Source: Hysterangium stoloniferum (Eukaryota > Basidiomycota > Agaricomycetes > Hysterangiales > Hysterangiaceae). Taken from it: a DNA stretch of 64,000 bases. The notes below the pieces were generated by a model. The model saw nothing but the letters and a program-made list of their open reading frames with translations, was not told the origin of the DNA and did not search any database. Position 1 is the first letter of the stretch. Every line of letters starts with the position of its first letter. Below, piece by piece: positions 121-63,614 of the stretch. The position numbers were made by a program, and so were the translations under genes. The stretch spans positions 4,216,001 through 4,280,000 of the forward strand of contig WHVD01000001.1 of NCBI GenBank assembly GCA_015178975.1, written 5' to 3'.

Positions 121-956
121 ATGTCTGACATAGAAGTCGATCAATTCGAATCAGAATCCAAGTTTTTGGGTTTCGAGGATAGGGATATGGTTGTTGATGC
201 AGTTGGTAAGTCATTTTCTGGGATTTCTTTTAAATTAGTTAATTAGTTTTTTTTAGAAGAAATTCCCAAAAAGTGCATAGCAGACTGCGAAGAACCGTTC
301 AATAAGGCAACTCACAAAGGAATTGGGATGCAATGGGAATTTGAGGCAAAATTGGAAGATTCGTAATTTTTTGGTTTTGTCGAATTTTTGTCGATTGTTG
401 CTAATTTGTTTTTTCCAGTTGCATGATGTGTTTTAACACAAATTTCATGTGCAAGAAGAGTAACGTGTCATTGAATTGTGATCGGTGCAATTGATTGCAT
501 CGGGCCTGTTATTGGACTGTGAATAGGCCAGCCGGAAAACTGCATCGAAACCAAAAGAAAAGTCAAAATGTGATCAAAGAGTCAGAAAATGAAAGTGAAG
601 ATGGTAGTCCAGGGATTCACAAGCTTGGACAAAGGAAGAATATTCATCATAACATCATGTCAAGAATGTCAAATTTTTCGAGACAGCCGAGAAGGTCGGA
701 AAACTGATCGGATAACCACTTGGAGAAAGAGATAAACTCGATCGGTGAAAGGATGTCGAAATTGGAAGATACTGTGAAGGATTTAATCGGTGAGGTCAAA
801 GCATTTAGAGAGGATTTTTCGATTTTGTCGAAGAAATTGGTCGAAAGTGGTGATTTTAGCGAGGAGACTGATATTAGTGTTAATAGTGGAAGATTTAGAG
901 GGGCATGGTTTGATAAGATGGTGGAGTTGAGAGAGGAAGGAATTGAGGATTTGTAG
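121..956 (+). pseudogene. Antisense zinc-cluster gene of gypsy element A (broken)
   Basis: This gene lies downstream of the element A chromodomain and runs opposite to gag-pol. I model exons 121-205, 257-362 and 419-956 with introns GTAAGT..TTAG and GTAATT..CCAG; the phases close. Exon 3 opens with a CX2CX6CX8CX2CX6C cysteine series (CMMC, then C, CDRC and C), the spacing of fungal Zn2Cys6 clusters. After it comes a basic/acidic linker and a helix with heptad-like leucines near codons for SIGERMSKLEDTVKDLI. Two in-frame TGA codons (492-494, 705-707) break it. Related genes sit at the same place in gypsy elements at 15,605 and 52,368. No function is known to me; a DNA-binding or regulatory role is inference. 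Confidence 0.55.
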
Positions 957-15604: not shown

Positions 15605-16402
15605 ATGGGACCAAAACCCATGCCACACAAACTCACCACCACTGCTGTAACTCCCATGGGGGCCACATACTAGGCTCCACTCACAGCTGCACAGATACTT
15701 GTGCAGCATGAGGAACAGCAGCAATGACAGGAAGAGGAGGAAAAGAAGGTGAGGAGGTAACATTGGAGAGGGAGTACCAGGTAGCTGTGGGAAAGGTAAG
15801 TCAAGCATATTTTATTGTCTAAGTCCTTACTAACTGTCCTGATAACACAAAGCAGCAGACATTGAGATGGAGTCTGAAGAGCAGGAGGGTCCTCAAAAGG
15901 TAAGTGGGCAGTCCTCTGTAATGCACAACTGGCTTATGTCTTATGTTTGACAGAAGGTCCAGAAAAACACTCCAGCCTGGCTGGAGACCAAAAATGACCT
16001 GTGGTGTTCTGGTTGTCATGACTGGAACATGGATTGTTTCTGGAAAGCTGGTTGGGACCAGGCTGCTGGCCATGTGTGCACTTGAAAGCCAAGTGCTCAC
16101 TGGTGCAGGATGCCTCAGGTTCTAGTTCCTGGGAAGTGGGTGGTCATGCAGAAAGCCCAGGGGCATTGGAGGAGGATTGGGGGAGGATTGGGGTGGGCAT
16201 TGAGGCCCAAAATGTCTTGTTGCATGATGGCAACAATGTGTGGAGGACTTTGGTAGGCTACATTCAGGACTTCTGTGGGTTATTCCAGAAGTTCCTGAAG
16301 GACTACAAAGACTATGAGGAGTCTGAGGCTGGGGGTTCCAAGGGTTCTGAGGAGATGGACATACATATCTGTGGGACCCAAGGAGGTCAAAGAATTGCAT
16401 AA
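15605..16402 (+). pseudogene. Antisense coiled-coil zinc-cluster gene of gypsy C-prime
   Basis: The ATG opens MGPKPMPHKLTTTA, matching MGPKPTPRRVMPTTG of the gypsy C antisense gene. A glutamine/glutamate-rich helix follows, then the exon HKAADIEMESEEQEGPQK with a GTAAGT donor near 15,900 and acceptor at 15,953. The next exon has CSGC, NMDC, then in a shifted frame GPGCWPCVHLKAKC, giving CX2CX6C-(about 9)-CX2CX6C. The tail IGVGIEAQNVLL is conserved with gypsy C. Stops in exon 1 and the frameshift show decay. The strand is opposite to pol, as in elements A and C. Function unknown. Confidence 0.6.
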
Positions 16403-31400: not shown

Positions 31401-34400
31401 TTCCATCCTTTGAATCTGTTAAAGGAACTTGTCGTGTTGAATCTGTCGTTTAACGAAATTCAGGAGATCCCCCCGTTTTGGCTGCAGTCGCTGTCTCAAC
31501 TACAGCGACTCTATCTCAGCGGTAACAAGTTGACAAGCTTGCCCTCTGAGAACCTTCATCATATGGCACAGTTGACGGAGCTCTTTTTGAACGGCAATAA
31601 GCTACAAACGCTTCCGAAGGAACTTGACAGTCTGAAGAAGCTAGCAGTGATTGACGTGGGTAGTAACTCACTGAAGTACAACATTAACAACCACGAGTTC
31701 GACTGGAACTGGTACGTTTTCACTTTTTTTTTTTTTTTCCAACTGTTATGTCATTCATTCATTCATCATTTTTTTTACCGTTGTAAACAGGAATAATAGC
31801 CCCGAGTTGCGTTATCTGAATCTTTCAGGTAACGAGCGCCTCGTTATTAAACCAGACTCCAAAGGCGATTACCAGCCCCCCCTGCAATACAGCGTCTTGA
31901 CAAATCTCCGAGTGCTTGGTCTAATAGGCGTGAGGATCGACGATGTGCGCTTTCGGGATGAGACCACTGATGTCCGTCGCGTGCGGCTTACAAGACCTAC
32001 CATCAATAACATGGCGTATGGGATTGCTGATATGCTTGGCAACCATTCCCATATTGGCATGTTCGACATGGTACATTCGAGCCTGCAGGGACGGGAGAGG
32101 GAGGACGAATGTCTGTTTGGCATGTTTGGACTCCTTAAGCCGCCGGAAGGCAGAGATCTGTTGAAGCCCTCGGACGCTACGAACAGCATTGCGCAGTTTT
32201 TGTGTCAAAATTTCGCACAGGCGTTCGTCACACACCTCGTCCCTCAATCACAGACAATAAGCGACGCTCTCCGTCGGACCTTCTTGAGCCTTAATATGAA
32301 TCTCTATGACCATCTAACAAAGCCGAAGGACGCCCGCAAGATGTCGACTGCGAGCAGCGTATCTGGCCCTCTGCCTGCGGAACACACCAATTTTGATATT
32401 AAACGCGGGGCGGAAGCGGTTGTGGTGTATATGGTAGATAGGACAATGTATGTTGCCAATCTCGGGAAGGCTCTAGCCGTCGTGTCACGACAAGGAACCG
32501 CGCATGTTCTATCAATGGACCACGATCCTTTTGATCGTTCTGAGACGGCCCGTATTCGAGCTGCAGAAGGCTGGGTGTCAACGGAGGGTCTTGTCAATGG
32601 CGAAGTGGACACCGCACGTTCGTTTGGCTACTATCATGTTCTTCCTGCTGTAAATTCGCGACCAGAGGTTAGGGAGTGGCAACTCTCGAAAGAGGATGAA
32701 TTCGTCATCATCGCGAACCGTGGTCTTTGGAGCTACATCACTTATCAAACGGCTGTTGATATCGCGCGGAACCACAGAGACGACCCGATGATTGCAGCGC
32801 AGAAGCTTCGAGATTTCGCTATGAGCTATGGCGCTGTGGGTAGTACGATGATCATGGTTATCCGGGTTTCTGATAGATTCCGTCCTGAGGGTCTCATGGT
32901 CGAACCTCCTGAAAGTCTTAAACGTAGGGCAAACAGGGGGGATGGTCCTCTGGATCGTACAATTGCTCGCCTGGAGCCCGAAGTCGAACCGCCTAAAGGT
33001 CACCTTACCCTGGTGTTCACCGATATCCGAAACTCGACACTCCTATGGGATAAGAACGCTGGAATGGCCACTGCAATAAAGCTACATCACAATCTCCTTC
33101 GCAGGCTTCTCCGAATGACACGCGGATACGAAGTTAAGACTGAAGGCGACGCCTTCATGGTGAGCTTCTCAGACGTTCTCTCTGCCGTCCACTGGTGTTT
33201 TATGGTCCAAGTCCAATTGTTGCATGAGCACTGGCCGCTGGAGATTCTGGAGAGTGAGGATGGGAAGGAGATCAGGGATTCTCAGGACCGGTTGATTGCT
33301 CGGGGTTTATCTGTTCGGATGGGGATTCATTGTGGTGTTCCCTACTGTGAACGGGATCCTGTGACAAGACGTATGGACTATTTGGGCCCTATGGTGAACC
33401 GCTGCGCCCGTATCAATCAAGCTGCCGCCGGAAATCAAATCCTTTGCAGCAAAGATGTTATTAAGGAGATCACTGAACGCGTCATCGACCGCGATCCGAA
33501 TGCACAGCTAGATGCGGAGGAAATGGCGACAATCGAGGCCCTGGAATCGAAGGGCATTAGGATTAAGTATATAGGAGAGAAGCGGATGAAAGGCATTCAA
33601 GATCCAGAGCCTGTCTCTCTTATATTCCCTCAGGAGCTTGATGGTCGTCTGGAGTTGGAGGAAGCCCAGGCTGATCCCGCTGTGGCATTGGATGCTTCGA
33701 CGGTTAAGCTCGATCCAGAACAAGTCGTTCTCGATGCGCCTGCAAAGATATCCCAGGAGGTTGATCATCCAGATGGGACAGAGGCGTCGTCCAGCGATGG
33801 TTGGCGATTCCCTGCGTACGGCGATAGGGCGGACATCCCGGATTTTGAGGACTTGTCGGCAAGCACGGGGAGTGCTGAATCGCCCATTGACCGACTTATT
33901 GTAGTAGGTGAGGGCAAAGTTCCAAGACGTCAGTCAGTGGACCAGTCAACGCATGTGCTGCCAAAGCTCGTGTTTGGCACTGATGACGGGTCTGAAGATA
34001 ATCCTGTCTTCCCCTTCAGCTCGCTGGACGAACCACTACTACGCGAGAAGGTCGACAAACAGGGCGAGACGACGGCATCGATCAGAATTAAACCTCGTCC
34101 GGGACGCCCACGTCTACGACCTAAAGACCCTGTCGTCTCCTCCACCATCAGTCGGGATGACCCATATTCCGAAGACCTGGAAGGTGAAGTCAAGCAGGTC
34201 GCGATTATATGTCTTCGGCTAGAAGCACTCTCTTCGAATCGCGTTTTCCGGCCATTGTCCTCTAGTGAGACGATGTCGCGGGGCCCGTATACATGCTCAT
34301 ATACTGACCCTAATGTTTTCTTTGCCGACCCCGAACTTCTTCTGCCGCCATTGAAAGGGCGATCAGAACTCGAGCTCAAATTCCTCCTAGATTCTTTCTC

Positions 34401-34476
34401 TGTACGCATCAGCAACGCTCTCACCACATTGCAAATTCAACGGACTTTGGCACTGACAACAAATTATCCATTATAA
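28453..34476 (+). CDS. Adenylate cyclase (RA-LRR-PP2C-cyclase), 1,945 aa
   Basis: Exons 28453-29607, 29663-29873, 29926-31711, 31791-34476; phases close. Converts ATP to cAMP, normally at the membrane under Ras/G-protein control. Order: Pro/Ser-rich N-terminus (1-380), Ras-associating domain (about 386-470; YLIRVDRDDRVSYHVV), some twenty leucine-rich repeats (about 500-1,080), PP2C-like domain (about 1,130-1,410; DHDPFDRSE, ARSFGYYHVLP) and class III cyclase (about 1,453-1,640). Catalytic signs are LVFTDIRNSTLLWD, KTEGDAFMVSF, GIHCGVPY and LGPMVNRCARI. An acidic tail and conserved-looking C-terminus follow. Length is close to that of other basidiomycete enzymes. The start at 28,453 is preferred over in-frame 28,324. 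Intact. Confidence 0.95.
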
Positions 34477-44349: not shown

Positions 44350-45385
44350 GCAGGGAGAGGCAGGTGGTGGACTCCGAACTGGCAGGGGAATGAGGGATGT
44401 GTCTGACACCGTAGAGAACAATGGTGTCGGGGTAGAGCAGGTGGCAACAAGGGGGTCAGGCGATGTGCAGGAGGGTGGAGTTGGCCACGGTGCTGGAGAG
44501 GGCTTGGGCACGGGTGAGGGCGGTGGTACGAGGGAAGGTCCTGTGGAGGGGAGAGGTAATGGTATAGGGGGAAGAGGAGGTGGGTCGGTGGCAGATGGCT
44601 CAAGACTTCCCAGCAGCTCTGAAAAAGGTGTGAAGTGCTGCAGTGGGGGCATGGAAGAAATGGATGGAGGTGGAGAGAGGTGGGTGGAGCTGGACAGCAT
44701 CGCAGGTTTGGCTGGACGATACCCCCTCCAAACCCTGATGGAAGTCGGTAATTTTCTTCATTGGTTAGGGTCACTCGTGAAGAAGTGAATGTTGTCAGGA
44801 AGTAAAAAAACTTTGTGGCAGTCAGTGCTGAGGTACTTGTCATCATAGGTGGGGTAGCATGGTTCATCATCCTCCAAGTTGGATGAGAAATCGATGGGGC
44901 CCATCTGGCCATCTGGTAGGTTCATTCCTGGGGCCCACGTTGGGAAGGAGGTCTGGGAGGTAGTGCAACTCCGTCCCCATGTCATAATGCAATGCTTTGT
45001 AGTTTGATCCTCCATACTCTGTCCCAATCGTAGAAGGTGACACTGTCCTTTCCTTTCCTGCTTTTCTGTCCCACACTCTGAACGCATGGTGTTCCCCTGT
45101 CACTGCAATCCATCTCAGTGAAATCCGTCCACTTATGGCCCAGGGGGGGGCAATGGTTGAAGGGTTGTTGCTTCCTTCCATTCTCCTCCATTCCTGCTGT
45201 GTCCGCTTTGAGGGGACATTATCCCTAGCACCCATCTTTTGCTGTCCTTCTAAGTACTCCTCCCTCCTCTTCCTCTTGAGCATTTTCAGTTCCTCCTGAA
45301 CTTGCACAGAGAAAGCCTCGGACTGCCATTTTTTTCTGATCTCCTCAGTGGAAGGGAAGATACTATGAGGGGGTGGGGGGGTGTC
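44350..45385 (-). pseudogene. Unrecognised minus-strand gene, middle piece
   Basis: Minus-strand frames give VQEELKMLKRKRREEYLEGQ, then SGRISLRWIAVTGEHHAF, GTELHYLPDLLPNVGPRNEP, MGPIDFSSNLEDDEPCYPTY, HKVFLLPDNIHFF and a Pro-rich end. Two frames are needed (a frameshift near 45,000), and a TGA follows DPNQ. The coiled start is basic. I know no family for it. It is interrupted by gypsy C on the right and by LTR-D on the left, and continues at 53,393-53,820 and 42,768-42,876. Confidence 0.45.
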
Positions 45386-46199
45386 TGTTACGACTGGAAA
45401 TCCCGCCGGACTACGGGCACTAACTTATACGCACCCGCCCCCTATATTCACCCATTATCAGTTCACCGGAATTCCCGCTGAACTCCATATGTCAGACTCG
45501 TCTATGTTTGTCTTTGTTACATTGTGTTTCAGTCACCGGAAAACCCACTGGACTCCATCTCTGTCTATTTCCAACCTTGTCCCGTGCATCAGTCACTGGA
45601 CCCTGCTCAGTAAAACCTGTCACCTCTCTAACAGAGCCCCATTCCCATTTTAGTCAAATGACCTGTCACAATTCAGACTCCACTCCCGCTGTTTCCCGTT
45701 ATGGTTTATGATTTGTCACTATTCGGACTCTGCTCCGTTCCATCCCGTTCCTAACACCAATTTGGTGTTTACTATTCCCATTTTATGTTTTGCTCATTTC
45801 ATTTCATTATTACTGGATTCAGTATGACATTTACTCCACTGTCTATGTAAACTGGCAGATGTTGTACATACAATCCAGTCAGAAAATCGGCTTAGATTCC
45901 CCCCAGTAATCTAATACATTTTCTGCTCTAAAACCCTACTTGAATCACACTGCTCGCACTAGTCGGAGCCCACGGGCTCCAGTGCATCTATCTCTCTCAC
46001 TAATCTCGACTTACGACCCACGACCTCTGACCTACGACCCCTCAAACCATGACCCCCACCCAGACTCCCCGGGATTCCCATCTGCCTGTCTGAAATTGGA
46101 TAACACGATCTAGCAAGGGCGCAGCCTATAAGCTGAAGCCAAGTCCTGCCAGATATTCTGTGGGTTTCTCCGGAGACCCACCCTGTACGTATCCTAACA
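45386..46199 (+). mobile_element. 5-prime LTR-C of gypsy C
   Basis: 814 bp, TGTTACGACTGG to TATCCTAACA. Stem-loop at 46,118-46,140 with intact CAGC/GCTG and GGC/GCC arms. The internal region begins GTATTTTCTGACTAAGAC. Confidence 0.92.
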
Positions 46200-46235
46200 G
46201 TATTTTCTGACTAAGACTTGCAGATTGCTTTCATT

Positions 46236-47511
46236 ATGCCACCAAGAAGAAATACACACGCACAGGCATCATTACCTGGACCGTCGACTCTTCATTCCCC
46301 ATTAACTCTGTATACCAGCCAGACGCTTGTGAACCAGTCGGAACCCATGGAAGAAGCCCGTATCGCAGAAGTCCCAGAAAACCAGGATGAATCTGAGCAC
46401 AAGGACGAATCTGTGGCCCCTGACAAGGGCAAAGGTGTTGAAATTCCTCTGCCTATCAAACGATCACACTAGGGGGATCCTACTTCTGAATTTTTAGCAG
46501 GTACTATAGATAAATTCATGACGCACCTGCTCGAAGAATGAAAGAAAAAGGAACAAGAACCTCCACAGTCAAAAGTCAATGCTCTGGAACCCTTCATGGG
46601 TTCCAACCCAAACAAACTCTCTACTTTCCTCATGCAATGTCGCTTCAATTTCCATGATCGATCCACCGCATTCTCCATGGACTCCCAAAAAGTCAACTAT
46701 GCACTTTCATACTTGTCGGGATCCGCGTTGAAATGGTTCGAACCGGCTTTTAGCGGAATTTCCGGGGAAGAGCTGCTCTGGCTCAAAGATTGGGATGCTT
46801 TTGTTGAGGAGCTTGAAACCAACTTTGGCCCATATGACCTGACAGGAGAAGCTGAGAATAGTCTCACAAATCTTCATATGAAGGACACGCAGCACATCAC
46901 AGACTACATCATCCAATTCAATAATCTTGCAGCTCATTGTCAGTGGGGCGATCCCACTCTCCGCCAAATTCTATGCCGATCTACTGTCCCACCTTAAAGA
47001 CAAAGTCTCAAAAGGAGAAGATGGCAAGCCAAAAACCCTGTCCCATATGTGCCTCAAAGCTCAAAATGCAGACACACGTTATTGGGAACATCACGTGGAA
47101 GTTGCCTGCGAGACCTCCGTGGACAAAGTAAACAAGTCCACGGCCAATAAAACCAACAACAACAACTCGTCAACCAGCAACCAAAACTCCATGCAATCCG
47201 ACAAGAAGAGCGATAAAAAGTCTTCAAACAACAACAACAATAACAACAAGGACAATAACAAGGGTCAACAGTCTGGCAAGCAAGCCAGAAAACCCGACCT
47301 TTCAGGCAAACTCGGACTCGATGGCAAATTGACCCCACAGGAAAGACAACGTTGCATGGACAACAACCTCTGTCTCTTGTGTGGGAAACCTGGTCATCGA
47401 GTCCCGGAATGTCCACTGGCAAAAGCAAACTCTTCAAAGGGTCAAACAGCCAAGGCCTCCACAGAAACCCCGTCGAAGGACAAACCGGCTTCTGACTTGA
47501 AAAAAGAGTAA
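46236..47511 (+). pseudogene. gypsy C gag
   Basis: Starts MPPRRNTHAQASLPG, with an acidic region, a capsid-like core (SALKWFEPAFSGISGEELLW, WDAFVEELETNFGPYDL, ENSLTNLHMKDTQHITDYI), an Asn-rich linker (47,150-47,260) and the zinc knuckle CLLCGKPGHRVPEC. TAG at 46,470 and TGA at 46,539 interrupt it, and a frameshift lies near 46,965. Gag packages element RNA into particles in the cytoplasm. Ends TAA 47,509. Confidence 0.85.
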
Positions 47512-50500
47512 GCAACCCTGCAGACTCCGTGTGGGTTGGGGGTTGCATTGCCTCTCCGCGCATTCAAGAGTTTACCTGTCTCAATGCATCTGCTCTTTCA
47601 CATTCTGATTCATTTTTCATTAAACTTATGTCTAATATGATTCCGAAATTCGTTTTTTCAGCTCTTATAGATTCCGGCTCAACTCATTGTTTTTTAGATA
47701 CAAAATTCACGCAAAAAAATTCTTTGTCAACTTATTCAATAAATCCCATTGGTCTCCACCTCTTCGATGGCACAAGTAATTCGGTTGTTACCCAAGCTTG
47801 TGATTTATCCATCTGTTTCCCGTGTGGAACATCTCAATTGGTCACTTTCTATGTGACCCAGTTAGACTCAAGTTGCTCGGTGGTCCTAGGACATAACTGG
47901 CTTACCCGCTACAATCCATTGATTGACTGGATAGCTAACAGTATAACATCCTGGACTCCTGCAGCAGCTGATGAAACTGTGCCTGTCCTGGCCTCCACAG
48001 CACCCATGGCCTTCCCAGCACCTGAAGTCTCAAGGACTCCTGTGATCCCTACGGCACCCATGCTTCCCAGAACCCACGGCACCTCCATCTATTTCTCTGA
48101 TTAATGCTGCAGCTTTTATTAGGGCTTCAAAAATGGACGGGTCCCAGGTGTTCACTATCAACTTAAAAATTGATGAAGCAACTGGACGTTTTTCAACCCC
48201 GGTATCTGAATCTGAGCAAGCTGCTGACCTAGAAGGCATCCTGGAGAAATATCATGACTTCACAGATGTTTTTAGCAAGTGGAAAGTTGACTGGCTTCCA
48301 CCTCACAGAGAATACAACTTAAAAATTGATCTCGAAGACGGTGCCCAGCCACCCCTAGGACATATTTACCTGCTCTTGTCCATGGAACTTTCCGTGATCC
48401 GTGATTTCCTGGATGAACATTTGTCCATAGGTTTTATCAGACCCTCAAAGGCTCCTTTTGGAGCACCTGTTCTGTTTGTCAGAAAAAAGGATGGATCCCT
48501 TCGACTATGTGTTGATTTTAGAGGACTCAATGCTGTCACCAAAAAGGATAAATATCCACTCCCACTTATATCTGATCTGCTCGATGCTCCGTGGAATGCC
48601 CAGATTTACACCAAAATAGATCTCAAACATGCCTATCATTTGGTCTGGATTGCCACGGGCGATGAATGGAAAACCACTTTTAGAACCCATTATGGGGCCT
48701 TTGAGTGGTTGGTGATGCCCTTTGGACTCACCAATGCTCCGTCTGTTTTTCAGCATTTTATCAATGACATTTTCTCTGACATGCTTGATGTATGCGTCAT
48801 TGTCTACTTGGATGACATTCTTATCTACTCCGAGAACTCCGTGGAACATGACAAACAAGTCCGTGAAGTTCTCTGGAGACTCCAACAACATGGTTTATTC
48901 ACAAATGGTAAAAAAATGTACTTTTGACACAGACTCTGTGGAATTCCTGGGTTTCATGATGGGACCCAATGGACTCCGCATGGATGAAACTAAGTGCAAG
49001 TCATCAAAGATTGGCCCAAACCCCAAAAAGTTAAAGATATACAATCCTTCCTCAGATTTGCCAATTTTTACCGACGTTTTATCCGTGGATATTCTGACAT
49101 CACAGTGCCCCTTACCCATCTTACGTGTAAGGGTACTCTGTGGAATTTTAATGATAAGTGTCAAAAAGCTTTCAATCTTTTAAAAAATTCTTTTTCTACA
49201 GCTCCTATTCTGTCGCATTGGAAACTGGACTTCCTGCTCATTGTTGAAACAGACGCCTCGGATTATGCACTTGGAGCCATTCTGTCTATCCAGGACTCCG
49301 ACGGAGAAGTCCATCCTGTGGCTTTTCTGTCCCAGACTTTCACCGGAGCAGAGCTCAACTATGATGTTCATGATAAGGAACTCCTGGCAATCTTTTCAGC
49401 TTTCAAAGTGTGGCGACACTATTTGGAAGGCTTGGGAACTCCTATTGACATTGTAACAGATCACAAAAACCTGGAATACTTGTCTACCACAAGATTTTTG
49501 ACCCATCGGCAGGCCCGTTGGTCTGAATATCTATCTGCTTTCAACATGATTATCCATTTTTGACCTGGCAGTCTTGGCGGCAAACCCGACGCTTTAACTA
49601 GACGATGGGACGTCTATCCTAAAGAGGGGAGCAATGACTATGCCACGGTAAACCCACACAACCTGAAACCTATTTTCACGAATCAACAACTTACCGCATC
49701 GGTCTGTGCAACTTTCCTCATCAATCCCATTGTCTGTGGAATTATCATTATGGATATCGAGAAGTTACATCATGATATTCTATTGGCAATTCCACTAGAC
49801 CCGATTACTAATGCTCACCTTGATAATACCGTGGACCCCGATCAACCTCGGTGGTCTCTTGATCAGCATGGTTTCATTAGACTTGACGATTGGATCTATG
49901 TACCGGACTCTGACGACCTCTGCCTCAGGATCCTTCAATACAAAGATGATCATCCACTCTCAGGACATTTTGGGTACAACAAAACTCTATCATTAATAGG
50001 AAGAGAATACACTTGGCCTGGACTCCGTGGATTTGTTAAGCACTATTGTAAATCTTGCACTACTTGTCCCCACTCGAAATCTCAGCGACACAAGCCATAT
50101 GGCCTTTTGAAACAACTCCCAGTACTGGAACACCTGTGGAATTCTATCTCTATGGATTTCATTGAACACCTACTGGATTCCGAAGGCTTTTCCACCATTC
50201 TAGTCATTGTTGACAGATTCTCAAAACAAGGTATATTCATCCCTACATATGACACAATTACGTCCGTGCAGTTAGTGGAACATTTCATTATCCATGTATT
50301 TTCCAAGCACAGAGTTCATATCTCACTTCTTTAGATCCCTTGGGAAATCCTTGGACATGACATTACATTTCACGTCCGGACATCACCCGGAAGGTGACGG
50401 ACAAACCGAATGCTTCAACCAGACATTGGAACAATATCTCTGCGTGTATTGCAACTACCAACAGGACAATTGGAAATCCTTGTTACCACTTGCAGAGTTT

Positions 50501-51189
50501 GCTTACAACAATGCACCTTCGGCCACTACTGGCATTTCCCCGTTCTTTGCAAATAAAGGATATAATCCAAATATTACAGTACATCCAGAACGAAATCTCA
50601 CCTCTGCTCGCACTCAAGAGTTCACCACGGATCTCCACAAGGAACTCCGGACTGCTATAATGTCTGCCCAAGAGCAATACCAACATTCAGCGGACAAACA
50701 CCAGATCCCGCCACCAAACTTCAAGATTGGCGATCGTGTTTTTGTCAAAGCTCAATTCTTCCGGATTACCTGTCCATCAAAAAGCTTGCTGAAAAATATT
50801 TAGGTCCTTTTGAAATTATCGCACAAGTAGGTTCAGTCTCTTCGACTCTACGGCTTCCAGATAGCATGTGTGCGGTACACCCGGCATTTCATGTTTCTAT
50901 GCTAGAACCTTGTACTGCTAACACTATCCCAGATTGCGTGCAATCTCCGCCTCCTCTGGTCACTATTGACGGAGAACCTGAGTTTGAAATCTCACAAATT
51001 TTATATTCAAAAATTGACAAGCGTCAACACACTTGTAAACTGCTTTTCTTGGTCAAGTGGGCGGGTTACGAGGGCACGGATGAAGAAACTTCATGGATTT
51101 TTGCCACGGAACTCGGTAATGCCATGGAAATCGTTACTGACTTTCATACAGCTTACCCACTCAAACCTGGACCACTATCTTCTCTCTGA
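47512..51189 (+). pseudogene. gypsy C pol: protease, RT, RNase H, integrase, chromodomain
   Basis: Protease ALIDSGSTHCFLD (47,663); RT GSLRLCVDFRGLNAVTKKD, MPFGLTNAPSVFQ, YLDDILIYSE (48,480-48,840); RNase H VETDASDYALGA, YDVHDKELLAIF; integrase zinc finger (H..H near 49,940; CKSCTTC), core start SISMDFIEHL, then HPEGDGQTECFNQTLEQYL; chromodomain LVKWAGYEGTDEETSWIF. Breaks: frameshifts near 48,100, 48,915, 50,330 and 50,800, and a TGA at 49,561 where relatives have Arg. The D,D,E integrase core is split by the 50,330 shift. Gag and pol lie in separate frames. Confidence 0.88.
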
Positions 51190-51401: not shown

Positions 51402-52368
51402 TCAGTCTACATTTATGGGACTGTGTTTTTTCCCCACCTCCTCAGCTACCTCCTCAGGGAGCTCCTCGACCTCCATGGTGACCCCAGCCTCATCTGACCC
51501 GGCCTCCTCGGAACTTCTGGCTTGTGGCTCCTCATATACATATCCACCAAACTCCACCAGGAACTTCCAAAATTCCGAGTGGAGCCCACAGAGCTCATTC
51601 GCCACCACCACTTGCACTTTGTTGCACTTTCTGAGCAACACGTTCTGGGCCTCTATGCCCTTGGCGATCCGTCCCAGGATTTTGTCCAACCCGGAAAATC
51701 TGTCCGACCTGCTGATGTCTCGTGCCCCGGACCCTGCAGCCTGCTTGTGAACGAGTGAACACCTCGCCTTGAGGTGCACACATTGGTAGCAGCCTGGACC
51801 CTGGCCAGACTTTCGGTTCCATTCTGTGTTCCGGTCATTACAACCGGAACACCGCGGGTCGTTCCGTGTGGGTAGGCAGACTGGCGCCACCTTCCTTGCC
51901 TTCTGTTGATGTGGTTAGTTCCACGGTATTTCCCACGGACCCGATGCTTAACTTTTGGGGGCTCTCTGGCTCCCCCTTGGACTCCAATTCAATTTCTGCT
52001 GCTTTGTGCTGAAAATGACAAGTCAGTGAGAAAAAAACAAAATGACAAGTCATTTTGGGACTTACCTTTCCTGCGATAATTGCAGCCCTGTCTGCAGCCA
52101 CCCGTGCCTTCTCTGCGGCCACCCACACAGCCTCGTCCTCATCTCTGTTCCTCTGCCTCTCAGCCTCCTCTGTGGCCAATGCCACCTGGTACTCCCTGTC
52201 TAAGGCCTCTTTGGCCTCTCTAGCCTCCTTCTCTGCTTCTTCACGAAGTTGGTGCTGCTCTTCTCGCTGCGCCAAGAGTTGGGCCACACTCCAAGTTGCC
52301 CGATACAGAGTGCCCATGGAGGGCCCGGTGGTTGGCATCACCCGTCTTGGTGTTGGCTTTGGTCCCAT
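51402..52368 (-). pseudogene. Antisense coiled-coil zinc-cluster gene of gypsy C
   Basis: Start MGPKPTPRRVMPTTG at 52,368. A long Glu/Ala/Arg coiled coil follows (EAEKEAREAKEALDREYQ), then a GTAAGT..TTTCAG intron (52,066-52,010), exon HKAAEIELESKGEPESPQK, and a second intron whose donor reads TTAAGC where C-prime has GTAAGT. The last exon has KARKVAPVCLPTRND, CSGC, NTEW, GPGCYQCVHLKARC, IAKGIEAQNVLL and an acidic end. The Cys pattern is CX2CX6(W)X9CX2CX6C; the third Cys is Trp here but Cys in elements A and C-prime. A TATA-bearing upstream block is shared with C-prime. No known function. Confidence 0.65.
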
Positions 52369-52424
52369 TTTGTTGAAGATGGGGGTAATAAAGAAGAAGA
52401 ATTTCTATTTTTTCAAATTTATAT

Positions 52425-52436
52425 ATAGGCTCATCG
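52425..52436 (-). promoter_or_regulatory. TATA box of the gypsy C antisense gene
   Basis: On the minus strand CTATATATAAAT follows the block GTGATCTGGAAGGTAAGG and precedes a CT-rich run and the ATG at 52,368, the same order as at 15,541 in C-prime. Confidence 0.5.
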
Positions 52437-52577
52437 TGTTTGAACCTTACCTTCCAGATCACATGACTCCTTGACACATACATGTAACCGACATGACTTT
52501 TGACACATGTGTGTAGCCGACAAGAACCTTATCGAGGTCTAGAGCCTCTTTGGGACTTCAGCATAAAGGGAGGGTAC

Positions 52578-53392
52578 TGTTACGACCGGAAATTCTACCG
52601 GACTCCAGGCACTAACTTTATGCACCCGTGCCCTATATGCACCCATTATCAGTTCACCAGAATTCCCACCAGACTCCGTACATCAGACTCATCTACGTTT
52701 GTCTTTGTTACATTGTGTTTCAGTCACCGGAAAACCCACCGGACTCCATCTCTGTCTATTTCCGACCTTGTCCCACGCGTCAGTCACTGGACCCCACTCA
52801 GTAAAACCCATCACCTCTCTAACAGAGCCCCATTCCCATTTTAGTCAAATGACCTGTCACAATTCGGACTCCGCTCCCACTCTGTTTCCTGTTATGGTTT
52901 ATGATTTGTCACTATTTGGACTCCACTCCGTTCCATCCCATTCCTAACACCAATTTGGTGTTTACTATCCCCGTTTTATGTTTTGCTCGTTTCATTTCAT
53001 TATTACTGGATTCGGTATGACATTTACTCCACAGTCTATTTAAACTGGCAGATGTTATACATACAATCCAGTCAGAAAATTGGCTTAGATTCCCCCCAGT
53101 AATCTAATACATTTTCTGCTCTAAAACCCTACTTGAATTACACCGCTCACACTAGTCAGACCCCACGGGCTCCGGCGCATCTATCTCTCTCACTAATCTT
53201 GACTTATGACCCACGACCTCTGACCTATGACCCCTTGAACCACAACCCCCGCCCGGACTCCCCAGGATTCCCTTCCGCCTGTCTGAAATTGGATGACACA
53301 ATCTAGCGAGGGCGCAGCCTATAAGCTGAAGCCAAGTCCTACTGGATATTCCACAGGTTTCTCTGGAGACCTGCCCTGTATGTATCCTAACA
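52578..53392 (+). mobile_element. 3-prime LTR-C of gypsy C
   Basis: 815 bp, TGTTACGACCGG to TATCCTAACA, directly after the polypurine tract. Stem-loop at 53,311-53,333. Confidence 0.92.
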
Positions 53393-53820
53393 GTTTCACT
53401 CCATGTTCCTGTGAAAGCCCCCCAAGTGCCAGAGGATGGGGGTGCAGTTTTTGGGACAGGGTCCGTCCATGTAGGATATGTGGATGAAGAGGCCTCCCCC
53501 AAGCACTCGACAATCTCTGTTTGAGGTGGTGAGGAAGGAGTAACCATCATTTGGGGTTGGGGGATCCTTTTAAAGTTGGGAAGTTGGGGTCTGGGGAGAG
53601 GAGTATATGGAGTGAAAACAGTTCTGCTCCCCGAGCTGGTGGAGGTTCCTGCCATGTTGTCCTGCACGGTGGAGTGCATTGATGATGGCATCCCAGAATT
53701 ACCTGTACAGTGCTCAACATTTTCAGTACGAGACGACATGGTAGAAGTATTGATAGGTTGGGGTCGCAGTATTCTTTTGAAGTTGGGGAGCCTGGGTTTG
53801 GGTTGTTGTTCCTGTGACAT
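53393..53820 (-). pseudogene. Unrecognised minus-strand gene, 5-prime piece
   Basis: Starts MSQEQQPKPRLPNFKRILRP. A second PNFKRIPQP repeat and Ser/Thr/Pro-rich sequence follow to SGTWGAFTGTWSE, where the frame runs into gypsy C. The duplicated PNFKRI motif is the only distinctive feature. With 44,350-45,385 this suggests one gene split by the element. Whether it is host or mobile is unknown. Confidence 0.45.
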
Positions 53821-54693: not shown

Positions 54694-54891
54694 GATAAAA
54701 ATTTCTTTAGTGGATTTACGTATTTTATATTAATTTTACGCTCCACTCGGTTATTGAGGTGAAAGGCTGAGGGATGAATAATGAAGGGTAGAGTTAAAAG
54801 TAATAAACAGTGTTTTCATCATGAGAAGGTGAAATGATCATTAGATTCGATAAATAGTTTTGTAAGCTCTGAGCAGAGTGGGGGTGTTACA

Positions 54892-57800
54892 AAGATCATT
54901 GCCATTTAACCAAGTGTCCTCTTCCGGTCCATATCCTTTCCATCGAACTTGGAAAAGGAGTCAATTTCAATGCTTTTTGTGTCCCACTATAGCTTCTACT
55001 TCATACTCCTCATCGTTATAGTCTAGTTCCTGAGGGTTTTCAAGTATTGCCCTTGATCCAAATTCCTTGGGGGAGAAATGTTACTTTTTAAGATGGTCTC
55101 GGTTGATCATGGGGTGTATTTGATATTCCGGGGGAATGTGGAGTTGAAAGACTTGAGGATTGATCTTCTCCAAGACTTCGAATGGTCCTATCTGTCTTTG
55201 AATGAGTTTCCTCCCAGGTCCTTTGGCTTCAACAAGCTTGAGAGAATGAGGATTGATTAGAACATAATCTCCTTTTGAGATATGTTCCACCGATCTCCTT
55301 TTCTTATTGTAGCTGCGAGCTTGCATTTCTTGTGCACGTGTGATCGAATCTCGCATCACCTGTCGATGGTTCTCCAGTTCTAAGATCCATTGGTCAGCTA
55401 AGGGGCTATCTGACAATTCTCTGGGAACCATGGGGTCGACCCCTCCTAGGCAGCGAGACAGTCCTCTCAGTAAGTATCCCATCAGCAAAAAGGCCGGTGT
55501 GTAGCTCATTGAACTCTGAACCGTCGAATTGTAGGTATGGGCCACCACTTGAGTCCATTTAGACCATTCCTCTTTCAAAGAAGCACAGTATGCTCTGAGC
55601 ATTTGCTCAATGATAGCATTGGCATTCTCCATTTGACCGTCACTTTGAGGATGATGGGATGAGGATACTGCGAGAGTGCTTCCATATACCTTGCAGACCT
55701 CTCTCCAGAACCTACAAGTCCATCTCTTGTCTTGATCACAGGTTATCCTTGAGGGTAAGCCAAAGGGAGCGGCTACTTTATTCACAAAGATTTGCGTGAA
55801 TCCTTCTGCAGGTAAATCCAAGGTCATGGGCTCACAAATTAAGAAACACGTGAGTTTATCCACAGCAACAAAGATGGCTGAGTAAGCACCCTCTGCAGAA
55901 GGTGGCAATCTGGTAATCAGGTCCATTGAGACAACCTCAAATGGCCTTAAGGGTACTTCTGCGGGTCGAAGAGCTCCTTGTCAAGCGGAATGATCAACCT
56001 TAGTTTTCTGGCATATGTCACAGCTGTGAGCATACACCATGCAGTCCTGCAACATCCTCGGCCAGAAAAACTGGTCCTTCATCAGCTGAAAAAGTCTGTG
56101 ACCGCCTGCATGAGCTCCTTTGAAGGGATTGTCATGTATCAATTTGAGTATGGTTGACATCATGCTGCTAGGTATGCAGATTCGACGTTTCCAGTCTGAA
56201 TCTCAAAAGAACAATAGCTTATTCTTGCTGATGAAATAGTGCAAAGGGGTAGCTACCATGTTTGGGGAAATGGGATTGGTGGCATAATGATTTCTGAAGG
56301 CAGGATCTTTCTGATATCCATTGCAAAGTTCCTTAGCATAATTCTCATCGATTTCTATAAGCAATTGGGGGTTTGAGAGAGTAAAGTTTGCCTCATCAAT
56401 TTCATCATTTCTGGGGAGGTTGTGCAGATACCATTTCGTTTGGGGGACCTCTTCCATCATTCCAATCGGTTCAACTAACTCATGATGAGTGAGAAGGATG
56501 GCCTTTTCCACTGGTTTGTTCTCCCATAATGTCTCGTTGTCATTCCAGTTGTAAGAATCTGCTATGATTGGTAAGAGGTTGTCTCTTGCGGGACTAGTGC
56601 AGTCAGATACTCGAGGGAGTCTAGACAGTGGGTCAACATTGCTGTGTATTTGTCCTGCTCGATGTAGGATTTCCAGACTGGGGTATGCAGCATATACCAC
56701 CCCCATGCGGCCAGTCGACGATTGGTATTCTCATAAGATCTGGCCCATAGTAACACTGCATGGTCAGTGATCAGAAGGGTATGTTCTCCCTCGATAAAGG
56801 GCTGGAAATGGACTAGTCCCTCCTTAGTGGCTAATGCCTCTCGCTCCGTGGCTGAGTAATTACATTCTGCTTTCTTGAGCATGCAGCTCCAATAGGCGAT
56901 GACATGCTCAATGGTGACACTGGTGTCATCAAAATCTGAGGCCTAGGAATCTGTTTAAGTGAATTCTGGCTCCTTGGTTTTATAACAAGTGACGAAAATT
57001 GGCATGTCTCGAGATTGATCAAAGGTTGATCTTGCTTGGGCATAGATTTTGGTGTCTTTTAGATCCTTGAGCATCATTTTCTGTATTTGTTGGAGACAAC
57101 ATCCCAATGTGAAGTCCGAAGCGTCTGTGTATAGCTGATAAGGCATGCTGCTCATGGGGTGTCCAAGTACTGGAGCAGAGCTCAATACAACTTTGATGTC
57201 TTTAAAAGCTCGGGTGTGTTCGGAATCCCAAGTCCAACAGACTCCTTTCTTTAAGAGGTTGAAGACCGGAGCAACCATCCAGGAATAAAATGGTATGTAA
57301 GTGGAGAAGTACAGAACCATCCCGAGGAAATGTTGAAGATCTGCTATCTTGGTAGGCATAGCTAGTTCTAGTATGGCAGCAACCTTTTCTTGATGGGTTG
57401 AAAAACTGAGTCTAGACACCTTATGTCCTAGTAATAGAATCAAGTTATACCCAATGTAGCACTTTTTGGGTGAGAGGGTGATTCCCGCTGCAATTATGGT
57501 TTGTAGGACCTGGTCTAAATACTCTAAATGATCATCCCATGTCTTAGAAAAGATCACGATGTCATCAATATAAACTAGGCAGAATATCCATAAGTAAGGT
57601 GTGAGTACGGTTTGCATAACTCTCTGGAATATAGAGGGTCCATTACGGAGTCCAAAGGGCATTCCCCTAAATTGCCACAGTCCTCGGTGGGATCTGAAGG
57701 TGGTCTTCGGTTTGTCTTCTTCTAACATTTTGAGTTGGGTAAAGCCGGCTAGCGCATCAAAGGAAGATAGGATGTTGGATCCTGAAAGCACTTGCATGAT

Positions 57801-58130
57801 TTCAGACTGGTGTGGCAACAGGAATTCATCAGGAACTGTTAGGCTGTTCAACTTCCTATAGTCAATCACCACTCGCAGTTTCCCATTGCAATAGATGACA
57901 AAGGGCACCCCCCAAGGACTCTTTGACGGTTCAATTACTCCCTATTGAAACCAGGTATCCATTTGTTCATCAATGACCTTCCTATTGGCTGGGGAAGTTG
58001 GAAACATTGGCATTGAAATAGGTTGCATGCCTTCTTTCAATGGGACACTGACTTTAACGTCTACTTGTCCTAAATGCCCGTCTACTCCAATGGCTTGGAC
58101 GTTCTTAGTCAAAACCAACTCCAAGTGAGA
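54892..58130 (-). pseudogene. gypsy E pol: RT, RNase H, integrase, chromodomain
   Basis: RT: GKLRVVIDYRKLNSLTVPDE, FDALAGFTQLKM, GMPFGLRNGPSIFQRVM, LVYIDDIVIFSKTWDDHL (56,955-57,908). RNase H: LYTDASDFTLGCCLQQ, SATEREALA. Integrase: zinc finger H-x-H-x-CDIC near 56,000-56,150, core MDLITRLPPS, SSHHPQSDGQMENAN. Chromodomain: LLFQVRWKGYGPEEDTWL near 54,905-54,960. TGA codons at 55,980 and two before LLFQVRW sit where Arg is plausible; frameshifts separate RT, RNase H and integrase. Confidence 0.85.
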
Positions 58131-60200: not shown

Positions 60201-60650
60201 GTTTAGAAATTAATAGTCATAGAGTAATGTTTTCTTTGTAGGGAAAGAGCTGTCTGGCCCAGATCACCACTGCAAAGAGTGGTGGAAATTCTAACCATTT
60301 TATATACAAAGAATATTGACTGTCTAGGTATGACATGACAATGTATTGACTATCTAAGTCTAATACAGACCAAACACATATTGACTATCTAGTTCAATAT
60401 GGTTGAGAGAATTAGCTATCTTAAGTAGAATAGAAAGCTAAGATGATACCCCAATCACAACCTACAGGACACTAAGTGGGTGTCTGGGTAAGTTGTGGTT
60501 ACGGGGTAAAAAGTGTCTAAGTTCTAACTATCGGCACTAGAATACATAGGTCTGGCACATATGTGCCCACAAGAGTCAATGTACCGAATGCATAGGTCAT
60601 TGAACTAAATATATGCATATAATAAAATAGGGAGAAAATAGAAATAATAA
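60201..60650 (-). mobile_element. Probable 5-prime LTR of gypsy E
   Basis: Non-coding, with a minus-strand TATATAAAATGG (about 60,295-60,306) 100 bp before the gag start, and repeats of GACTATCTA-type sequence (60,310-60,400). The LTR start was not found and may lie near the minisatellite. Confidence 0.45.
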
Positions 60651-60699
60651 TGGAAATATAGTATGGGCTCGTCCAGACTATATTTTGGAATATATTTCA

Positions 60700-62400
60700 C
60701 CGTACCTCTCACAGCAAGCACACTGTGTGAGCACACCAACACGTCATGTGGGTACACAAGTATGCTGCACAAGCATGCCAACACATCACGTGGGTACATG
60801 AGTGTGCTGCATGGGTGCAATTCGAGGGAGTACCATGCGAGTGTACAAGTGCAGTATGAGGGTGCAGCTTGAAGGTGGGGCACAGCTTGAAGATGCACTG
60901 CATGGGTGCACAGGTGTGCCAAGTGCAGCATGGGTGTGGTTCGAGGGTGTGCTATGTGGCAGTACAAGGGTGTGCTGCATGGTTGCGCAAGTGCGCAGGT
61001 GCACTGCATGAGTGCACAAGTGTGCAAGTGTGCTGCATGGGTGTGCAAACACGCCATGTGGGTACACAAGTGCACAAGTGCACTGTGTGGGAGCATGAGT
61101 GCACAAGTGCACTGTGTGGGAGCATGAGTGCACAAGTGTGCTGTGTGGGAGCATGAGTGCACAAGTGTGCTGTGTGGGTGCACAAGTGTGCTGTGTGGGT
61201 GCACAAGTGTGCTGTGTGGGTGCACAAGTGTGCTGTGTGGGTGCACAAGTGTGCTGTGTGGGTGCACAAGTGTGCTGTGTGGGTGCACAAGTGTGCTGTG
61301 TGGGTGCACAAGTGTGCTGTGTGGGTGCACAAGTGTGCTGTGTGGGTGCACAAGTGTGCTGTGTGGGTGCACAAGTGTGCTGTGTGGGTGCACAAGTGTG
61401 CTGTGTGGGTGCACAAGTGTGCTGTGTGGGTGCACAAGTGTGCTGTGTGGGTGCACAAGTGTGCTGTGTGGGTGCACAAGTGTGCTGTGTGGGTGCACAA
61501 GTGTGCTGTGTGGGTGCACAAGTGTGCTGTGTGGGTGCACAAGTGTGCTGTGTGGGTGCACAAGTGTGCTGTGTGGGTGCACAAGTGTGCTGTGTGGGTG
61601 CACAAGTGTGCTGTGTGGGTGCACAAGTGTGCTGTGTGGGTGCACAAGTGTGCTGTGTGTGGGTGCACAAGTGTGCTGTGTGGGTGCACAAGTGTGCTGT
61701 GTGGGTGCACAAGTGTGCTGTGTGGGTGCACAATTGTGCTGTGTGGGTATGCAAGTGTGCCGCACAAGTGAACAAGTGCACAAGTGCATTGCACAGATGC
61801 ACAACTGCACAACTGCACTGTGTGGGGGCACAAGTGTGCCATGCAGATATGCAAGTGCACAACTGCACTGTGTGGGGGCACAAGTGTGCCATGCAGATAT
61901 GCAAGTGTGCCATGCAGATACGCAAGTGTGCCACACAGATACGCCAGTGCACCGTGCAGATATGCAAGTGTGCCATGCAGATATGCAAGTGTGCCATGCA
62001 GATATGCAAGTGTGCTGCACAGATACGCAAGTGCACTGTGCAGATATGCAAGTGTGCCGCACAGATATGCAAGTGCACCACACAGATATGCAAGTGCACC
62101 ACACAGATATGCAAGTGCACCACACAGATATCCAAGTGCACCACACAGATATGCAAGTGCACCACACAGATATGCAAGTGCACCACACAGATATGCAAGT
62201 GCACCACACAGATATGCAAGTGCACCACACAGATATGCAAGTGCACCACACAGATATGCAAGTGCACACAGATATGCAAGTGCACCACACAGATATGCAA
62301 GTGCACCACACAGATATGCAAGTGCACCACACAGATATGCAAGTTCACCGTGCACATACACAAGTGCACCATGTGGGTGTGCAGGTGCAGTGCAAGGGCA
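60700..62400. repeat. 21-bp minisatellite with two homogenised arrays
   Basis: Array 1 (about 61,158-61,745) repeats GCACAAGTGTGCTGTGTGGG plus T, roughly 28 units, nearly identical, with one 23-bp unit near 61,656. Array 2 (about 61,985-62,345) repeats GCAAGTGCACCACACAGATA plus T, about 17 units, with one 18-bp unit at 62,262. Diverged units lie on both sides from 60,700. Because 21 is a multiple of three and the unit lacks stops in most frames, long open frames (200-617 codons) appear on both strands. I read these as artefacts of the repeat, not genes. Confidence 0.9.
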
Positions 62401-63614
62401 CAGTTTGAAGGCATGTGGGCATGACTTGAAGGTGTCTGCATGGGTGCAGTTCGAGAGTGCACTGCATGGGTGCATCTATGGTTCGAAGGGCAACTGGCCC
62501 AACAGAAACAGACAGTGCTGCAGAGCAAGGTGATGTAGGGGTGCAGGTTTGGGTCACTGGGGAGATACCCTTGAAGTGACGAGCAATTCGGGCAGAGAAG
62601 CAGACATAGGCCTACTTTCAAAGAGCCATCCCATGGCACTGCATAGAGATGGGTGACAGTGCTAAGATACCTTACCCAGTTCTTCCAATGACAAGGAGAT
62701 GGTGTGAGATCGACAGTCGAGTATGAAACAGAGTAAAGGACTGACCTCCAAAACTTGTGGACACATGTGGATGCAGGGCCGTGTCACCTCACAATGAAGC
62801 CTTCACACCGTCTTGACTTTCAAGGTCACCTACACTTAGCCTTCCCCTCCACTAAAGCTTCACACTGAAATAGTTGAAGCTTTGCCTTTCTGACCTTCAC
62901 AACTTACAGGTTCGGTGCACACTGTTCAACAAGGTGCGGCTAATGGTTCAGTTCAGCTAGGGTTCAGCGTGCAACATTTTTCAACAAGGCATCCATGGGT
63001 TCAGGTTCGGGTTTGTGTCAGGAAGAAGAGGGTCTGCGATGATAAAATTCACCATCCCAGAAATTCAGCAGATCTTCAATTTCTCCTCCTCCTGGTATGA
63101 TGAGTCTCAATTTCATAGCACCAATGTCTCCCTCCCCAAGTTGCACATCCACTTGATGGCTTTACAGGTGCTCTTAGCATCTTCAATGCCTACAAAATGC
63201 ACACATGGCTGCAGGCCTGACAATGCAACAATGATGGCAGCACACAACTTCCAGTGGAGTTTGCGAGTCGCATTGATGTGCTCATTGCTTGTGGTTGAAT
63301 TCATGAGCATCCTTCTCACACATGTCGATGCGCCAGTTGCCTTCTGGTCACACAACACTGTTCCCCGACAACATTTCACCAACACACATGGACCCTTTTC
63401 CCCCACCCCCTCCACTTTACTTTCATCGGTGGTTGACTAACTGCAAAAGGTCCGATAACTCACAGGGCAACACCTAGACTGGATATATCTGGAGGGAACT
63501 GAGGAAAGTGTACACACCCAACCCCGGTGCCATATTTGGGCTCACTATCACAATCGCACTGAACTCAGTTGATTTTGTGATTTTTTCTTTTTCCTCTGGA
63601 CCCACCCACCTACT
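62401..63614. other. Unassigned sequence after the minisatellite
   Basis: No supported gene. Overlapping frames at 63,015-63,440 (plus) and 63,113-63,415 (minus, CVHFVGIEDAKSTCKAIKWM) have a protein-like look but no recognised family. The minus one could be a transposon-derived fragment. Confidence 0.35.

What the first reader, a model, noticed from the sequence alone, without database searches (positions are those of the whole stretch)
51402..52368. Antisense, intron-bearing zinc-cluster gene carried by gypsy elements (three copies)
Seen: elements A (121-956), C-prime (15,605-16,402) and C (52,368-51,402) each carry, between chromodomain and 3-prime LTR, a gene on the strand opposite to pol. 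Shared: MGPKP start (C, C-prime), coiled coil, introns at like places, GIEAQNVLL (C, C-prime), and cysteines spaced CX2CX6CX8-9CX2CX6C. Known: that spacing is the fungal Zn2Cys6 cluster. Inferred: an accessory DNA-binding or regulatory protein of the element. Introns in antisense orientation would survive retrotransposition because the genomic RNA is the other strand.
Basis: partly seen in the sequence, partly recalled or inferred. Interest (0 to 1): 0.85.

Follow-up and report, generated by a model that had tools for sequence, protein, structure and literature searches.

The report
Antisense regulator-like gene in fungal retrotransposons
Jumping genes in this probably fungal genome carry, on their back strand, an extra intron-containing gene for a probable nuclear DNA-binding protein that selection has kept intact, which suggests that the element makes its own regulator.

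Summary
The antisense gene is real and belongs to a large element family, not to three odd copies. Of 150 scored pol ends, 112 have a listed copy 665-806 bp downstream, on the opposite strand each time; 38 are undecided because the lists are capped. In 12 of 22 aligned copies the inferred spliced frame is open (286-309 aa): coiled coil, bipartite-NLS-like stretch, CX2CX6CX9CX2CX6C, helix, acidic tail. Intron 1 keeps GT-AG in 22 of 22, intron 2 in 20 of 22. Exon 3 dN/dS averages 0.17 against 1.3-1.8 in four of the other five frames; the wobble-mirror frame gives 0.22 but holds stops. Two copies have identical LTRs. A TATA box upstream of the ATG is conserved, also in C-prime. All three window copies are broken. 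Pfam Zn_clus stays below cut-off. Antisense accessory genes are known (plant Grande and Retand, Botrytis brtn); this intron-bearing, zinc-cluster-like form seems a new variant. Most likely it is a nuclear regulator made by the element. Splicing, zinc and DNA binding, and function are inferred, not shown.

The parts
45375..46201 (+). 5' LTR of element C
   Evidence: self-alignment, 89.9% identical to the 3' LTR
52568..53394 (+). 3' LTR of element C by alignment (TG start near 52578, preceded by a purine tract)
46236..47508 (+). gag of element C (decayed)
   Evidence: tblastn with L018 gag; Retrotrans_gag
47409..51186 (+). pol of element C (decayed): protease, RT, RNase H, integrase zinc domain, SH3_Tf2-1, chromodomain just under cut-off
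52066..52368 (-). antisense gene, exon 1 (MGPKP start, charged coiled-coil region)
   Evidence: alignment of 22 copies
52009..52065 (-). intron 1 (GTAAGT...CAG)
   Evidence: GT-AG in 22 of 22 copies
51952..52008 (-). exon 2 (57 nt)
   Evidence: 57 nt in 22 of 22 copies
51903..51951 (-). intron 2; donor lost here (TT)
   Evidence: GT-AG in 20 of 22 copies
51402..51902 (-). exon 3 (cluster, helix, acidic tail)
   Evidence: 501 nt in 22 of 22 copies; mean dN/dS 0.17
51759..51851 (-). six-cysteine cluster region; third Cys is Trp in this copy
52418..52428 (-). TATA box of the antisense gene, about 50-60 nt before the ATG
   Evidence: conserved in the aligned copies that align there and in C-prime
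15605..16402 (+). C-prime antisense gene (stops and frame shift)
121..956 (+). A antisense gene (stops at 492 and 705)

Best explanation
It is a conserved accessory gene of a chromodomain Ty3/gypsy retrotransposon family, tail-to-tail with pol and driven by its own TATA promoter between the 3' LTR and its ATG. Two short introns are inferred to be spliced out; splicing brings two basic clusters (KRK and KKARK) to either side of the short exon 2 as a bipartite nuclear localisation signal in front of a six-cysteine cluster. The introns persist because the packaged genomic RNA is the opposite strand. The product most likely enters the nucleus, binds DNA, perhaps as a coiled-coil dimer, and regulates transcription of the element, from the 5' LTR (gag-pol), from the 3' side (itself), or both. 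Shown: the gene, its copies, position and strand, conservation of frame, splice sites and promoter. Inferred: splicing, nuclear entry, zinc and DNA binding, regulation and its sign.
For: Opposite strand beside pol in 112 of 150 scored pol ends. 12 of 22 aligned copies open; GT-AG in 22 and 20 of 22; no indel in exons 2 and 3 of 22. dN/dS mostly 0.15-0.30 between copies (range 0.14-0.53), other frames 1.29-1.75 except the wobble mirror 0.22; gag and pol of the same elements, against L018, 0.11-0.57 and 0.09-0.35. Identical LTRs in L017 and L018, which keep both introns. Promoter segment 92.3% identical where the gene is 79.2%; TATA and CT tract conserved also in C-prime. Cysteines kept at 42-47% identity: four of six invariant in 13 rows, the other two each lost in one row. 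Long confident helix after the cluster. Precedents: Grande gene23 is nuclear with its own promoter (PMC7264820); HBZ is a spliced antisense nuclear regulator (PMC10186651 passages).
Against: Pfam Zn_clus is under cut-off, and the first half lacks the usual run of basic residues, which here lie in the second half (canonical layout recalled). The model of the cluster is poor (pLDDT about 40), and no PDB relative was found. No transcript or binding data. The CGG-N3-CCG excess in the L018 LTR (5 against 0.46 expected) was not seen in the three other LTRs tested. 38 of 150 pol ends have no listed gene. Copies were picked by protein similarity, which lowers dN somewhat.
Confidence: 0.6

Rival explanations
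1. The protein acts after transcription: a nuclear adaptor or chaperone of the pre-integration complex or of chromatin targeting, with the cluster as a protein- or RNA-binding fold.
For: Nuclear signal, coiled coils and acidic tail fit this as well; reviewers propose such roles for plant antisense ORFs (PMC7264820). The chromodomain shows that chromatin targeting matters to the element.
Against: A separate promoter and spliced mRNA would make the amount independent of gag-pol, which suits a regulator better; six Cys with cluster spacing suggests nucleic-acid binding. Neither point is decisive.
Confidence: 0.2
2. The antisense RNA is what matters: it pairs with the genomic RNA and limits the element through dsRNA or interference, and the reading frame is secondary.
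For: Tail-to-tail genes can give overlapping transcripts; proposed for plant elements (PMC7264820).
Against: Protein-level constraint: dN/dS 0.17 in exon 3, no indel in exons 2 and 3 of 22 copies, conserved splice sites. An RNA role in addition is not excluded.
Confidence: 0.1
3. A host zinc-cluster gene was captured and is a passive passenger.
For: Introns look like those of a host gene; host Zn_clus genes exist (62 matches of 83 scored).
Against: Several lineages (39-81% identity in the L048 search, query aside) under purifying selection, in tail-to-tail position with pol. Capture long ago as the origin stays possible; by eye none of the places is one search place.
Confidence: 0.05

Closest known systems
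brtn of Boty-like chromodomain Ty3/gypsy elements of Botrytis cinerea (Zhao et al. 2011; title and passages seen in PMC8365987, PMC4227169 and PMC7264820; the paper itself not read)
   Same: additional antisense gene in a fungal gypsy element with gag, integrase and chromodomain
   Different: no zinc cluster or introns mentioned in the passages seen; sequence not available here for comparison
gene23 of maize Grande and the TRP28 antisense ORFs of Retand elements (PMC7264820 parts 1-2 of 3, PMC11963269 passages)
   Same: antisense, between pol and 3' LTR, present in most copies, nuclear protein with its own promoter (Grande), predicted DNA binding (TRP28)
   Different: plant elements; Retand is a non-chromovirus lineage; a find for 'intron' in PMC11963269 gave 0; different domains
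HBZ of HTLV-1 (PMC10186651 passages)
   Same: spliced antisense gene near the 3' LTR, nuclear regulatory protein that lowers 5' LTR transcription
   Different: bZIP, not zinc cluster; promoter inside the 3' LTR; retrovirus; no homology claimed
Fungal Zn(2)-Cys(6) binuclear cluster (PF00172)
   Same: two CX2CX6C halves and a helix that may dimerise after the cluster
   Different: below the Pfam cut-off; basic residues in the second half; carried by a retrotransposon

Membership tests
Antisense additional ORF (aORF-3R) of LTR retrotransposons | open frame between pol and 3' LTR, antisense to gag-pol | tested here: met
Antisense additional ORF (aORF-3R) of LTR retrotransposons | present in most copies of the family | tested here: inconclusive
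   112 of 150 scored pol ends; 38 undecided because the lists are capped
Antisense additional ORF (aORF-3R) of LTR retrotransposons | conservation like that of the other element proteins | tested here: met
   dN/dS in the range of gag and pol
brtn of Boty-like elements | sequence homology to BRTN | not tested
   no BRTN sequence was compared
Fungal Zn2Cys6 cluster (PF00172) | CX2CX6CX5-12CX2CX6-8C spacing (range recalled) | tested here: met
   22 of 28 C-type and 8 of 20 C-prime-type loci
Fungal Zn2Cys6 cluster (PF00172) | score above the Pfam cut-off | tested here: not met
   L018 10.2 bits against 21; best E among 13 members 0.016
Fungal Zn2Cys6 cluster (PF00172) | binds two zinc ions and DNA | not testable with these tools
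   needs purified protein
Chromodomain Ty3/gypsy element (chromovirus) | gypsy order of pol domains with a chromodomain after integrase | tested here: met
   Chromo 23.5 bits, slightly under its cut-off of 25.1, in the decayed window copy
Tf1/sushi-like self-priming | primer site complementary to the start of its own RNA | tested here: inconclusive
   by eye, ATTTTCTGACT after the 5' LTR is complementary to AGTCAGAAAAT about 30 nt after the LTR TATA; tRNA priming not tested

The most novel reading that the evidence does not exclude
The element encodes its own sequence-specific zinc-cluster repressor or activator, whose sites are the reiterated CGGACTCC(G) motifs in the LTR, so that U3 of the 5' LTR controls gag-pol while U3 of the 3' LTR, just upstream of the antisense TATA, controls the regulator itself. 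Regulator and LTR would diverge as a pair and set copy-number or immunity groups, much as repressor and operator do in phages.
Probability: 0.2. Interest if true: 0.88.

Novelty: new variant of a known kind. Interest (0 to 1): 0.62.

Why it matters
The roles of antisense accessory genes of LTR retrotransposons are described as unknown in the review read here (PMC7264820). This product has a readable architecture (nuclear signal, zinc-cluster-like motif, coiled coil), the gene is under measured purifying selection, and candidate sites sit in the LTRs, so the regulator hypothesis becomes a short bench test. If true, a fungal retrotransposon would have converged on the HTLV arrangement of a spliced antisense nuclear regulator. 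It is also a clean case of introns kept through retrotransposition because their gene is antisense.

Tried and rejected
Swapped regulator-LTR module: dS of the antisense gene between L018 and the window copy (0.70; 0.61 without CpG codon contexts) is 3-5 times that of pol (0.22; 0.13), and some pol ends identical to L018 over 189 aa sit beside genes 87-89% identical to L018 (C535, C70). But over 187 pairs of 20 held elements pol and gene distances correlate at 0.93, the partial correlation of gene with U3 given pol is 0.41 and of gene with pol given U3 0.63, and my permutation test returned no valid permutation (0 of 0). So the module idea is not supported; the higher dS is unexplained.

No fold search was run, because the model is poor (mean pLDDT 52). 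Scans of viral contigs, prokaryote genomes and plasmids gave no relative, nor did PHROGs; PDB searches gave only weak helix matches (E 0.13 and above) or nothing. Homology of A's gene to C's was not detected from its pieces. Conservation of A's six Cys in other copies could not be tested; of 125 listed matches to its last 81 aa, at least ten list an open frame of 183 aa, long enough to reach back to the cluster.

A zinc-cluster or intron-bearing antisense gene in a fungal retrotransposon was not found in paper searches. These cover open-licence papers only; Zhao 2011, Gomez-Orte 2013 and Steinbauerova 2011 were not read.

Full report
What is there. Element C is a Ty3/gypsy element with LTRs at 45375-46201 and 52568-53394, 89.9% identical, gag and pol on the + strand (Retrotrans_gag, RVP_2, RVT_1, RNase H, Integrase_H2C2 and SH3_Tf2-1 above cut-off, Chromo 23.5 bits against 25.1), and an antisense gene at 52368-51402. 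C-prime and A have the same tail-to-tail arrangement. The window copies are decayed: C has Trp for the third Cys and TT at the intron 2 donor; C-prime has stops in exon 1 and a frame shift in the cluster; A has stops at 492 and 705.

Copies and position. With the window exon 3 as query, 150 of 150 scored places match, from 1,288 first-look candidates. With L018 exon 3, 150 of 150 scored from 1,341; by hand count 110 list no stop and 19 are 100% identical. For the pol C-terminus 150 were scored of 3,479. Of these 150, 98 have a gene 704-787 bp downstream, none on the same strand; 14 of the other 52 have one at 665-806 bp, each on the other strand. 38 remain undecided, since the lists are capped. 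Distances run from hit start to hit start.

Structure. Of 28 C-type loci, 22 were aligned; left out were three duplicates (L002-L004) and three with split or partial matches (L009, L014, L023). Intron 1 is GT-AG in 22 of 22, intron 2 in 20 of 22 (lost in the window copy and in L011). Exon 2 is 57 nt and exon 3 501 nt in 22 of 22; exon 1 has a length divisible by three in 18 of 22; intron 1 varies from 48 to 64 nt. In 12 of 22 the joined frame has no stop, the window copy with its lost donor among them. The L018 product is 294 aa: basic N-terminus, charged coiled-coil-like region, KRK and KKARK on either side of exon 2, the six-Cys cluster, a long helix, an acidic tail. L017 and L018 have LTRs identical over 822 and 821 nt and keep both introns.

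Selection. Among the printed pairs of 15 copies (at least 40 differences) dN/dS is 0.14-0.53, mostly 0.15-0.30; for seven representatives it is 0.29, 0.23 and 0.17 in exons 1, 2 and 3, and variable sites by codon position are 75, 77 and 160 of 295 each. In exon 3 the other frames give 1.37, 1.31, 1.29 and 1.75, and 0.22 in the mirror frame that shares the wobble position and holds about 2.9 stops per copy (0.6 in the gene's own frame). Bootstrap intervals for L018 against L012, L008, L010 and the window copy lie between 0.11 and 0.41. Copies were chosen by protein similarity, which lowers dN somewhat. Pol and gag of the same elements against L018 give 0.09-0.35 and 0.11-0.57.

Relatives. Five C-prime-type rows have 42-47% identity to L018 in exon 3; over 13 rows four of the six Cys are invariant, the third is lost in the window copy and the fifth in L031. 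A search with L048 lists further lineages at 39-81% identity, most with open frames. A's gene has the same order of parts (CX2CX6CX8CX2CX6C apart from its stop) and 39 further listed copies at 85-90% DNA identity, but no detectable homology; its cluster may be convergent or too diverged.

Promoter and LTR. The 210 nt between ATG and LTR are 92.3% identical between L018 and the window copy; the gene is 79.2%, the LTRs 81-82%, gag-pol 90-93%. They hold CTATATAAA about 50-60 nt before the ATG and a CT tract, both also in C-prime. CGGACTCC is, with its near-complement CGGAGTCC, the commonest 8-mer of the L018 LTR: 4 exact in 821 nt against 7 in 6,457 internal nt; the window LTR has 4 in 818 against 0 in 6,366. 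The positions are shared among the LTRs compared, often decayed at the CpG, and two are missing in L013. CGG-N3-CCG is in excess in L018 (5, expected 0.46, 0 of 200 shuffles) but not in L012, the window LTR or L013. It is a candidate site, no more.

Comparison. [quoted passage not shown] HTLV HBZ is a spliced antisense nuclear regulator. The present gene is of that kind. Its zinc-cluster-like motif, its two conserved introns and its presence in several chromodomain lineages of one genome were not found in the papers searched. As a Zn2Cys6 protein it meets the spacing but not the Pfam cut-off, so I call it zinc-cluster-like and do not file it as a member.

Limits. One genome; no transcripts; no binding data; species not determined. 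A host gene with LRR, PP2C and adenylate cyclase domains at 29913-34473 fits a fungus (architecture recalled); 'basidiomycete' was not tested.

Noticed in passing
window 60605-62783: Array of 21-nt repeats (29 listed copies in one family, 35 in another) with long open frames on both strands; coding status unknown.
   Followed up: partly
window 29913-34473: Probable host gene with LRR, PP2C and adenylate cyclase domains, the layout of fungal adenylate cyclase (recalled); in two overlapping open frames, so introns are likely.
   Followed up: no
L018 1234-1260 and its LTR at about 490-510: Putative self-priming site: the start of the internal region is complementary by eye to the presumed start of the RNA.
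   Followed up: partly
window LTR pair 45375-46201 / 52568-53394: Of 80 differences between the two LTRs 73 are transitions, and 41 fall in a CpG of either copy, as expected of CpG decay.
   Followed up: partly
own genome C56:27459-45410, C113:99414-111360, C115:74483-75050: Clusters of Zn_clus matches, some with several clusters in one short open frame; an expanded family of unknown nature.
   Followed up: no
L018 versus window element C: Synonymous divergence of the antisense gene is 3-5 times that of gag-pol in the same pair, also without CpG codon contexts; unexplained.
   Followed up: partly
window 54850-58067, - strand: A fourth, distant gypsy pol (26-32% identity to L018 pol) beside C-type LTR sequence; whether it has an antisense gene was not tested.
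   Followed up: no
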